NCBI RefSeq assembly: GCF_022879595.1
Contig: NZ_CP084266.1
Span: forward strand, 620,001 to 684,000
Length of the DNA: 64,000 nt
Direction: 5' to 3'
Origin: Caballeronia sp. Lep1P3
GTDB lineage: Bacteria; Pseudomonadota; Gammaproteobacteria; Burkholderiales; Burkholderiaceae
In this document: one piece after another, positions 10,380-13,049 of the stretch
How positions within the stretch are numbered: position 1 is the stretch's first letter
Layout: the number at the start of each line of letters is the position of its first letter
Position numbers and translations under genes: made by a program
Notes under the pieces: model-generated
Told to the model about the DNA's origin: nothing
Databases searched by the model: none
Seen by the model: the letters and a program-made list of their open reading frames with translations, nothing else

Positions 10380-13049
10380 ATGATGACTGCGTCCACGGAA
10401 ATCAGCCGCTCGCAAGTGCGTAATCGCATCGTGAGCGATCTCTGGCAGGCGATCTGGACGTTTCGCCTGCAGACTCTCTGCGCGGTCGCGCTGATGATCG
10501 CTTCGCGTCTCGCGGTGGTGTCCGTGCCGCTGATGCTGAAGCACGTCATCGACGAGTTCAGCAGGCCGACCGCGAATGCGGTGTTTCCCGTCTTCGTGAT
10601 CCTGACGTATGTGCTGATGCGCTATCTCGGCGACGTGCTCAACGAAGCGCGCGATGTGATATTCAGCATCGTGACTCAACGCACCGTCGCGTCGTTCACG
10701 GCGCGCACGTTCTCGCATCTGCACAACATGGGCGCGCGCTTTCATGCGCAACGCGAAACCGGCGGTGTGGTGCGCGACGTGCAAAAAGGCGCGGACGGCA
10801 TCGGTTTTCTGCTCGGCGTCGCGATCTTCACGATCGTGCCGACGTTGATCGAAATCGGCACGGTCGTCGCGATCATGGTGAGTCAGTATGCGAAGACATT
10901 CACCATTGCGATTGCCGTCACCTTCGTGTGCTATGCGGTCTATACGCTCATCTCCACGCGATATCGCATGCGCTTTCAGCGTGCGGTGAACCGGCTAGAG
11001 GCGCAATCGGACAGTCGCCTCGTCGACAGCCTGCTCAACTATGAAACAGTGAAACTCTTCGCGAGCGAAGATGTGGAACGCGGACGCCTTTCCACGGTGC
11101 TCGACAAATGGGTCGATGCGCGCACCGCGAACCAGCGTGCGCTCACGATCCTGCATGTCGGACAGAGCACGGTCATTGCCATCGGCATTGCGGCAGTGAT
11201 GCTGCTCGCCGCGCAGAACGTCGTCGCGGGCACGATGAGCGTGGGCGATCTCGTTCTCGTGAACGCGTATATCGTGCAAGTGTGCGCGCCGCTCAATACG
11301 CTCGGCTTCGTGTTTCGCGAGACGAACGATGCGATCGTCAACGTCGAACGCATGTTCGAGATTCTGCTGGCGCGCGGCCGTCGCGGTGAAGACGTGGACG
11401 AGCCGGATGCGAAGGCCCTTGTCGTGACTGCAGGCGAGATCGAATTCGAACATGTGGATTTTGGCTACGACCCCGCACGCCAGATTCTGCGCGATATCGA
11501 TTTCCGCGCGCATCCGGGAAAGAAGCTCGCGGTAGTGGGCGGCAGCGGCTCCGGCAAGTCGACGCTGATGAAGCTGCTCTTCAGGCTTTATCAGCCGACT
11601 GCGGGCGTGATTACCATCGACGGTCAGGATATTCGCACGGTCACGCAGAAGAGCCTTCGCGAAGCCATCGGCATCGTTCCGCAGGACACCGTACTATTCA
11701 ACGATACGATCGCCTATAACATCGCGTATGGGCGGCCATCCGCGACGCGTGCGGATGTCGTTCGCGCGGCCCGCGCCGCTCAGCTGGACAGCTTCATCGA
11801 ACGGCTGCCCGATCACTACGACACGCGTGTCGGCGAACGCGGCGTGCGGCTCTCGGGCGGCGAACGGCAACGCATCGCCATTGCGCGCGCCATCCTCAAG
11901 GACCCGCGCATCATCGTGTTCGACGAGGCGACGTCCGCGCTCGATACGCGCTCCGAGCGCGCCATACAAAGCGAGCTCGACAGGCTCGCGCAAGGGCGCA
12001 CGTCCATCGTCATCGCGCACCGGCTATCGACTGTCGTCAACGCGGACTGGATTCTCGTGATGGAGCACGGACGCATCGTCGAGCAGGGTCAGCATGCAGA
12101 GTTGATCGAACGCGGCGGCGTTTATGCGCGCATGTGGGCGCTGCAATCGCAACAGGGCGAGCTCGCGCAAGTGCAGCGCAAGGTCTCGGCGCAACCTGTC
12201 GGCCTTGGCGCGTTGATCGCGGGCGTCGTCGATGGCTTGCACGAAGAGATCGTCGAACATGGCGTGCAGCTTTATACGATGATGCCCGACGCCGACCTGC
12301 GCGTGACCGGCGATCCTGGCGTGCTGCAACTGGTGATAGCGGACCTGTGCCGCACCGAGATACGCGCGGCCGAGCGCGGCGAACGCGTCGAACTGCGCGT
12401 GGAGCGCGAAGCGAATCAGGTGCGCGTCTGCGTGCTCGGCCGCCGTGCGCAACCCGCGCCCTTATCGCAAGAACAGGCGCGTAGGCTCGAACAGGCGTTG
12501 AGCGAAACGGGCGGCAACTTCACCGTCAATTATGTCGACGGACACCTCGCCTACGTCGCGATGATGCCGCTGCGCCCCGTCGTCGATGCCGACAGCCTGG
12601 CCGGACTCGCCGAGCCGGACGCAAACGTTACCGGCAATCTGGAAGGCCTGTGCGTGATGGTCCTCGACGATCAGGACGCCGCGCGCGAAGCGCTGGGCGC
12701 CGTTCTGGAGACGTCCGGTGCCGGCGTGCGGCTCGCCGCGTCGGGCAAGGATGCACTCGAATGGCTCGCGCAAACGCCGACGGACGCGTGGCCCGACGCG
12801 CTCCTATGCGACATCGTGCTCGGCGAGGAGGACGGCTATCAGGTGCTGCGTCGCGTGCGCGAACTGGAAGCGAGCCGGCGCGTTTCGCTCGATCAGCGCA
12901 TTCCCGCCATTGCGTTGACCGGCCACACGCAGACGGAAGATCGCTTGCGCGCGCAAATGGCGGGCTTTCAGATGCACATGACAAAGCCCGTTTCCGCGGA
13001 ACGCCTCATCGCGGCAATCAGGCAAGTGGCCGTGAGAACCGAAGCCTGA
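10380..13049 (+). CDS. ABC exporter fused to HATPase-like and receiver domains
   Basis: An 889-residue fusion. Residues about 20-335 are six-helix type IV exporter membrane segments of the HMT1/ATM1 type. Residues about 355-590 are an ABC ATPase with Walker A at 386-394 (Lys393), signature LSGGERQRIA near 490, Walker B IIVFDEAT near 512 and an H-loop. Residues about 600-735 look like a decayed histidine-kinase ATPase domain. Residues about 755-889 are a receiver with Asp763/Asp764, phospho-acceptor Asp811 and Lys869 intact. Exporter half-transporters work as dimers; control by phosphorylation is inferred from the receiver only. ATG 10380 is preferred over 10374 because GGAAG at 10368 is then 7 bases away. 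A ParB-like gene follows 9 bases later. Confidence 0.85.
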   Translation: MMTASTEISRSQVRNRIVSDLWQAIWTFRLQTLCAVALMIASRLAVVSVPLMLKHVIDEFSRPTANAVFPVFVILTYVLMRYLGDVLNEARDVIFSIVTQRTVASFTARTFSHLHNMGARFHAQRETGGVVRDVQKGADGIGFLLGVAIFTIVPTLIEIGTVVAIMVSQYAKTFTIAIAVTFVCYAVYTLISTRYRMRFQRAVNRLEAQSDSRLVDSLLNYETVKLFASEDVERGRLSTVLDKWVDARTANQRALTILHVGQSTVIAIGIAAVMLLAAQNVVAGTMSVGDLVLVNAYIVQVCAPLNTLGFVFRETNDAIVNVERMFEILLARGRRGEDVDEPDAKALVVTAGEIEFEHVDFGYDPARQILRDIDFRAHPGKKLAVVGGSGSGKSTLMKLLFRLYQPTAGVITIDGQDIRTVTQKSLREAIGIVPQDTVLFNDTIAYNIAYGRPSATRADVVRAARAAQLDSFIERLPDHYDTRVGERGVRLSGGERQRIAIARAILKDPRIIVFDEATSALDTRSERAIQSELDRLAQGRTSIVIAHRLSTVVNADWILVMEHGRIVEQGQHAELIERGGVYARMWALQSQQGELAQVQRKVSAQPVGLGALIAGVVDGLHEEIVEHGVQLYTMMPDADLRVTGDPGVLQLVIADLCRTEIRAAERGERVELRVEREANQVRVCVLGRRAQPAPLSQEQARRLEQALSETGGNFTVNYVDGHLAYVAMMPLRPVVDADSLAGLAEPDANVTGNLEGLCVMVLDDQDAAREALGAVLETSGAGVRLAASGKDALEWLAQTPTDAWPDALLCDIVLGEEDGYQVLRRVRELEASRRVSLDQRIPAIALTGHTQTEDRLRAQMAGFQMHMTKPVSAERLIAAIRQVAVRTEA

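What the first reader, a model, noticed from the sequence alone, without database searches (positions are those of the whole stretch)
10380..13049. ABC exporter fused to a decayed kinase-ATPase region and an intact receiver domain
The sequence shows an ATM1/HMT1-like exporter with complete Walker A/B and signature motifs, followed by about 135 residues resembling a degenerate histidine-kinase ATPase domain and then a receiver with Asp763/764, Asp811 and Lys869 intact. Receivers are rarely attached to ABC transporters. The inference is that transport may be gated by phosphorylation, or that an ancestral kinase-receiver was captured by a transporter.
Basis: partly seen in the sequence, partly recalled or inferred. 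Interest (0 to 1): 0.75.

Follow-up and report, generated by a model that had tools for sequence, protein, structure and literature searches.

The report
Sugar-linked exporter with signalling tail
A bacterial ABC exporter carries, as one conserved protein, a dead piece of a histidine kinase and an intact phosphate-receiving switch, and its gene travels with a sugar-assembly gene cluster, which suggests that cells may switch export of a sugar product on and off directly through signalling.

The parts
10374..13049 (+). ABC exporter - degenerate CA domain - receiver fusion, 891 aa (889 aa if started at 10380)
   Evidence: full-length relatives
10479..11291 (+). ABC transmembrane domain (residues 36-306), ATM1/ABCB7/ABCB6-like
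   Evidence: closest solved TMDs are Atm3, ABCB7, Atm1 and NaAtm1 (6e-60 to 1e-44)
11433..12143 (+). nucleotide-binding domain (about residues 354-590) with Walker A 389-397, signature 493-500, Walker B from 513, E518, H549
12120..12188 (+). exporter's C-terminal helix and junction (residues 583-605); stands where kinase DHp helix 2 was
   Evidence: collinear alignment with hybrid kinases; helix 583-605 in the full-length model, with low confidence at 597-606
12162..12578 (+). degenerate histidine-kinase CA (HATPase_c) domain, residues 597-735, ATP-binding boxes lost
   Evidence: related fusions P0043 and P0046-P0048 pass the Pfam HATPase_c cut-off
12579..12644 (+). variable linker, residues 736-757
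   Evidence: 736-751 low confidence in the model; median dN/dS 0.311
12645..13031 (+). receiver domain, residues 758-886; D765/D766 at 12666-12671, phospho-acceptor D813 at 12810-12812, T849 at 12918-12920, K871 at 12984-12986
13059..13661 (+). ParBc_2 (putative ParB-like nuclease) gene just downstream; a local neighbour
   Evidence: a match somewhere in 13 of 79 fusion stretches
13645..14634 (-). UDP-glucuronate decarboxylase-like sugar epimerase/dehydratase (UXS), first gene of the linked glycan cluster
   Evidence: Pfam; so named in annotated relative L059; linkage
14673..15602 (-). glycosyltransferase (GT4-type) of the cluster
15619..16683 (-). glycosyltransferase family 9 (heptosyltransferase family) of the cluster
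16680..17735 (-). glycosyltransferase family 2 of the cluster
17732..19477 (-). carbamoyltransferase (Carbam_trans_N and _C), only copy found in this genome
   Evidence: present in 73 of 79 fusion stretches
19490..20656 (-). second glycosyltransferase family 9
20653..21231 (-). HAD-family hydrolase of the cluster
21228..22517 (-). glycosyltransferase (GT1/GT4-type)
22716..24385 (-). glycosyltransferase family 2 and PIG-L deacetylase genes, outer part of the cluster

Best explanation
It is an ATM1-fold ABC exporter whose C-terminal helix was joined, probably once, to the CA and receiver domains of a hybrid histidine kinase just after the DHp helices. The CA domain lost ATP binding and kinase function but is kept as a folded coupling or docking module. 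The receiver can still be phosphorylated on D813 by a kinase encoded elsewhere (or by a small phosphodonor), and this changes how the two nucleotide-binding domains come together and so the rate of export. The cargo is most likely the product (an oligosaccharide or glycolipid) of the carbamoyltransferase/GT9 cluster with which the gene travels. Shown: domain order, ancestry, loss of ATP boxes, retention of the receiver site, purifying selection, cluster linkage. Inferred: homodimerisation, phosphorylation in the cell, effect on transport, cargo, direction of transport.
For: Ancestry. CA fold. Of 90 distinct fusions: phospho-Asp 90, Lys 90, and second acidic residue + Asp + Thr/Ser + Lys together 87; complete G1 box 0, complete G2 box 0, first N-box Asn 1. 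Median dN/dS over pairs of 9 Caballeronia sequences: CA 0.056 and receiver 0.061, against linker 0.311 and NBD 0.025. Linkage: of 79 fusion stretches, 73 have the carbamoyltransferase and 74 at least four cluster genes; of 43 named contexts, 36 have the carbamoyltransferase. Co-occurrence in 299 family genomes: 88 with CA hit and carbamoyltransferase, 1 with CA hit only (stretch L176, not a fusion), 14 with carbamoyltransferase only, 196 with neither; of the 88, 77 were checked to be ABC fusions and 11 were not. Putative cavity residues altered family-wide: Q202 in 86 of 87 and H261 in 88 of 88 fusions with a residue there. Hybrid kinases lie near the fusion in at least 13 of 43 contexts.
Against: No experiment bears on phosphorylation or transport. 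No one kinase is common to most contexts. Three of 90 fusions lack part of the receiver's acidic pair. One genome (G238) has an exporter ORF 63% identical over residues 4-594 in the same cluster with no CA-receiver tail after it, so the tail can be dispensed with. Eight of 14 cluster-bearing genomes without a CA hit show no exporter in the stretch read. K871 lies inside the pattern by which the genome loci were found, so its invariance is biased for those rows. ATM1-type exporters are not known to me as glycan exporters (recalled).
Confidence: 0.58

Rival explanations
1. The tail is a docking and sink module: the receiver takes phosphate from kinases or a small phosphodonor, or simply anchors the exporter to signalling proteins, without gating transport.
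For: Site intact; the CA domain is conserved as a fold without its ATP boxes; no common partner kinase; an exporter without the tail exists in one cluster.
Against: A covalent fusion kept across many genera, with selection on CA and receiver like that on the TMD, suggests a role tied to the exporter.
Confidence: 0.22
2. It is an ATM1/HMT1-type exporter of glutathione-linked or metal compounds, and the glycan linkage is only an island neighbourhood.
For: TMD closest to Atm3/ABCB7/Atm1 among solved structures; most putative cavity residues kept (Y187, R198, Q264, N308, G311, R315).
Against: The genome has a separate unfused ATM1-like paralogue (L002, 49%) that keeps R and N at the two positions where the fusions have Q and H; 88 of 89 CA-hit genomes have the cluster's carbamoyltransferase, also when it lies on another contig (G063) or about 30 kb away (G038).
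Confidence: 0.15
3. The tail lets the exporter act as a sensor: cargo load or export state is passed through CA-receiver to another protein.
For: Transporter-linked signalling is known in other forms (CbrA, BceAB-BceS; recalled); the tail derives from a kinase.
Against: No DHp His and no complete ATP box were found, so the protein should not be able to start a phosphorelay by itself.
Confidence: 0.05

Closest known systems
ATM1/ABCB7/ABCB6 (HMT1) exporters, e.g. NaAtm1, Atm3
   Same: TMD and NBD sequence and motifs; five of seven putative glutathione-site residues, plus N308
   Different: Q202 in place of R and H261 in place of N in nearly all fusions; extra CA and receiver domains; glycan neighbourhood
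PAS/GAF-type hybrid histidine kinases (HisKA-HATPase_c-receiver)
   Same: CA and receiver collinear and homologous; same CA fold
   Different: no DHp or phospho-His found, no complete ATP boxes; the input half is an ABC exporter
Sensor kinases fused to transporter-like domains (CbrA; recalled, not tested)
   Same: a transporter and two-component modules in one chain
   Different: there a working kinase has a transporter-like input; here an ABC exporter has a receiver and no working kinase
BceAB-BceS peptide transporter and kinase (8g3a listed; function recalled)
   Same: ABC transporter physically tied to a kinase-type module
   Different: separate proteins with an active kinase; here one polypeptide with a decayed CA domain

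Membership tests
ATM1/ABCB7-type ABC exporter | TMD closest to this clade | tested here: met
   Atm3 6e-60, ABCB7 3e-52, Atm1 3e-48, NaAtm1 1e-44, ABCB6 7e-38; first other (multidrug exporter 6rah) 1e-12
ATM1/ABCB7-type ABC exporter | complete NBD motifs | tested here: met
   Walker A, signature, Walker B, E518, H549
ATM1/ABCB7-type ABC exporter | glutathione-site residues (Y, R, R, N, Q, G, R; NaAtm1 site recalled, mapped by sequence pattern) | tested here: not met
   five kept, Q202 in place of R and H261 in place of N; assignment of the site is from memory (the paper search found nothing)
ATM1/ABCB7-type ABC exporter | transports glutathione or metal/sulfur conjugates | not testable with these tools
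   needs biochemistry
Hybrid histidine kinase | DHp domain with phospho-His | tested here: not met
   no HisKA hit at E <= 1; exporter helix at that place
Hybrid histidine kinase | CA fold | tested here: met
Hybrid histidine kinase | N, G1 and G2 ATP boxes | tested here: not met
   complete G1 0 of 90, complete G2 0 of 90, first N-box Asn 1 of 90, second N-box Asn 15 of 90 fusions
Two-component receiver | acidic residue, phospho-Asp, Thr/Ser, Lys | tested here: met
   87 of 90 fusions have the set
Two-component receiver | accepts phosphate | not testable with these tools
   needs biochemistry

The most novel reading that the evidence does not exclude
A family of two-component outputs in which the effector is an ABC exporter: the receiver, acting through a kinase CA domain reduced to a structural coupler that stands where the kinase dimerisation helices led into it, turns export of a carbamoylated, GT9-built glycoconjugate on or off after translation.
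Probability: 0.4. Interest if true: 0.82.

Novelty: new variant of a known kind. Interest (0 to 1): 0.63.

Why it matters
Two-component systems are thought of mainly as transcription switches. A receiver covalently built into an ABC exporter, kept under selection across several families, would be a direct signal-to-transport connection that can be tested with one point change (D813). The decayed CA domain is a natural example of a kinase ATPase fold reused as a coupler, and a relative without the tail in the same cluster gives a ready comparison. The linkage also points to an uncharacterised exported or surface glycan of Burkholderiales.

Tried and rejected
Assembly join or private fusion: rejected, since full-length fusions occur in many genomes and genera. 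A low-oxygen (lxa) locus link suggested by the B. multivorans neighbourhood: I searched and looked at passages of PMC3759415 and PMC9104464; nothing there ties it to this gene, so the idea was dropped. PMC7912956 (Cupriavidus zinc adaptation; outline and passages) concerns a different, importer-type ABC operon.

Conserved neighbouring kinase as phosphodonor: a profile scan gave kinase hits in 12 of 43 named contexts, plus L144 and the window. It missed at least one, the PAS-HisKA-HATPase-receiver kinase of L062, so the count is a lower bound of 13. Two kinase types recur: a CheB-CheR-PAS-HisKA-HATPase-receiver protein of about 1370 aa, 67-94% identical, 1.2-1.4 kb upstream in 3 of 8 Cupriavidus contexts (L073, L082, L061) and 3.1 kb downstream in P. 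sprentiae (L063); and a protein of about 1040 aa, 39-45% identical, in L080, L083 and L093. The window's genome has three CheB-CheR kinases at 45-52%, none in the window, one with an internal TGA. So no common partner is shown; these are leads. My odds did not change.

Carbamoyltransferase search in the family: 121 genomes at E <= 1e-60, of which I counted 102 as orthologues (64% identity or more, E <= 1e-190; the next hit is 1e-120 and 47%). Of the 14 without a CA hit, 4 hold divergent fusions found by profile (L221-L224), one an incomplete exporter ORF (L219), one an unfused exporter (L229), and 8 no exporter in the stretch read, two of these with CA-like hits in ORFs without ABC (L225, L227).

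In one search my receiver query for tblastn was out of frame, so that part is void; searches repeated the question with 90 CA-receiver tails. The full-length model is weak over the exporter (mean pLDDT 66.7, pTM 0.37), so no domain arrangement is drawn from it. A class-wide sample with the window's CA domain found only the window's own genome among 369; this single-sequence query misses distant fusions such as those in Bordetella and Roseateles, so it does not bound the distribution. Fisher's p of 2e-59 ignores kinship between genomes.

Literature: ten searches, of which I saw the listings; no listed title or abstract start describes an ABC exporter fused to a receiver. Subscription papers are mostly not held.

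Full report
WHAT IS THERE. Pfam finds ABC_membrane at 36-306, ABC_tran at 372-521 and Response_reg at 761-883, and nothing between ABC_tran and the receiver. Walker A, signature, Walker B, catalytic E518 and H549 are intact, and the receiver has D765/D766, D813, T849 and K871.

DECAY AND RETENTION. From 96 gathered fusions, 90 distinct ones were compared with nine hybrid kinases. In the kinases all eight ATP-box positions tested are invariant. In the fusions no complete G1 box and no complete G2 box is left; the first N-box Asn is kept in 1 and the second in 15. In contrast the phospho-Asp is kept in 90, the Lys in 90, and the set of second acidic residue, Asp, Thr/Ser and Lys in 87 (P0038, P0039 and P0045 lack the acidic residue). 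The Lys was part of the search pattern for the genome loci and is biased there; the Asp was not. Among the 36 pairs of nine Caballeronia sequences (35 for the linker) the median dN/dS is 0.061 (TMD), 0.025 (NBD), 0.056 (CA), 0.311 (linker) and 0.061 (receiver). The CA domain is thus not drifting debris but a constrained part without its ATP boxes. A quick tree of 66 fusions and 48 kinases puts all fusions on one side of one branch (SH-aLRT 100), in line with one fusion event; the kinases were those nearest to P0043, and some branches are long.

DISTRIBUTION. In the window's genus (Caballeronia, judged from matching named records) the tail was sought in 58 genomes: 21 have matches at E < 1e-90, G044 has 3.7e-90 on a short contig (residues 23-296), and two more are partial (G020; G026, with a stop). 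Of 299 genomes of the family, 89 (9 of 25 genera) match the CA domain at E <= 1e-5. I fetched 20 stretches from the genus and 60 of the 69 hits in other family genera: 79 of these 80 are ABC fusions, the exception being L176. Of the 80 named loci kept I examined 52, and 38 (L064-L101) have the ABC signature in the same frame (L076 without Walker A); 28 of 80 were not examined. The five plasmid/chromid records examined also have it, of eight found. Named holders include Paraburkholderia, Cupriavidus, Pigmentiphaga, Rhizobacter, Hydrogenophaga, Bordetella, Achromobacter, Roseateles, Rhodocyclales MAGs and Solimonas soli. One source already labels a member (P0035, organism not shown) as an ABC transporter with a C-terminal response regulator.

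THE NEIGHBOURHOOD. On the minus strand, beginning at 13645 just past the fusion and the small ParBc_2 gene, lies a cluster: UXS, GT4, GT9, GT2, carbamoyltransferase, GT9, HAD hydrolase, GT1, GT2, PIG-L. In 79 fusion stretches (one of 10.2 kb, the rest 18.9-19.5 kb) the carbamoyltransferase is present in 73, HAD in 72, and at least four cluster genes in 74; the two GT9 queries cross-hit each other, which inflates their counts. In 43 named contexts the carbamoyltransferase is present in 36; the seven without are L078, L083, L084, L086, L087, L093 and L099, four of them (L078, L083, L086, L087) shortened by contig ends. Annotated examples are Caballeronia zhejiangensis, Paraburkholderia sp. D15, P. 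sprentiae and Burkholderia multivorans. The carbamoyltransferase is single-copy in the window's genome. Across 299 family genomes: 88 with CA hit and carbamoyltransferase, 1 CA hit without it (G286, whose stretch L176 is not a fusion), 14 with carbamoyltransferase only, 196 with neither. Of the 88, 77 were checked to be ABC fusions (the window, 17 genus and 59 other stretches) and 11 were not fetched. Of the 14, four hold divergent fusions in the cluster. In G038 the cluster lies about 30 kb from the fusion and in G063 on another contig. In G238 the cluster holds an exporter 63% identical over residues 4-594 whose frame ends without CA or receiver; the nearest CA- or receiver-like matches are more than 9 kb away. 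The ParBc_2 and polB neighbours in the window are local (13 and 8 of 79).

CARGO SITE. The TMD's closest solved relatives are Atm3, ABCB7 and Atm1. Mapping the NaAtm1 glutathione site from memory by sequence pattern, the fusions keep Y187, R198, Q264, G311 and R315 (and the nearby N308), but have Q202 where ATM1 proteins have R (86 of 87) and H261 where they have N (88 of 88); the unfused paralogue L002 in the same genome has R and N. A changed but constrained cavity agrees with a different cargo.

MECHANISM. Because no DHp His and no complete ATP site were found, the protein should not phosphorylate itself; information most likely enters through D813 from a separate kinase or a small phosphodonor. 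The tail hangs from the NBD's last helix, so receiver dimerisation or receiver-CA contacts could favour or oppose NBD closure. This step is inference. Kinase genes lie in at least 13 of 43 named contexts, none common to most; a CheB-CheR hybrid kinase recurs in three Cupriavidus contexts (1.2-1.4 kb upstream) and one Paraburkholderia context, and a 1040-aa kinase in three others. These are candidates, not partners. The window's genome holds three CheB-CheR kinases at 45-52%, all outside the window.

LITERATURE. Ten searches listed no title or abstract start on such a fusion; I saw passages of three papers, none on this protein.

VERDICT.

Noticed in passing
13645-24385 (-): A conserved carbamoyltransferase/GT9/GT2/GT4/HAD/UXS/PIG-L glycan cluster of unknown product; its carbamoyltransferase orthologue is in 102 of 299 family genomes.
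   Followed up: partly
L229 (G238:C1:2732000-2751500): The cluster's exporter without the CA-receiver tail: ORF 14171-16111 (-), 63% identical over residues 4-594, no tail remnant nearby.
   Followed up: partly
L073 2737-6864, L082 2656-6750, L061 1579-5679, L063 13026-17153: A CheB-CheR-PAS-hybrid histidine kinase of about 1370 aa beside the fusion in three Cupriavidus contexts and one Paraburkholderia context: a candidate phosphodonor.
   Followed up: partly
L030 and L032 (Caballeronia-genus genomes G044, G026): A partial copy on a short contig and a stop-bearing copy of the fusion tail in genomes of 3.9 and 3.7 Mb, possibly decay in reduced genomes.
   Followed up: no
L144 (B. cenocepacia NZ_CP091014.1): The tail matches in two pieces and the record carries almost no annotation; the copy may be broken.
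   Followed up: no
24469-25401 (-): Protein of 310 aa beside the glycan cluster with no Pfam match at 1e-5; found only in L231 among the stretches tested.
   Followed up: no
L052 and L056 (G052): One Caballeronia-genus genome carries two fusion copies; in one stretch no cluster gene was found, the nearest carbamoyltransferase on that contig being about 46 kb away.
   Followed up: no
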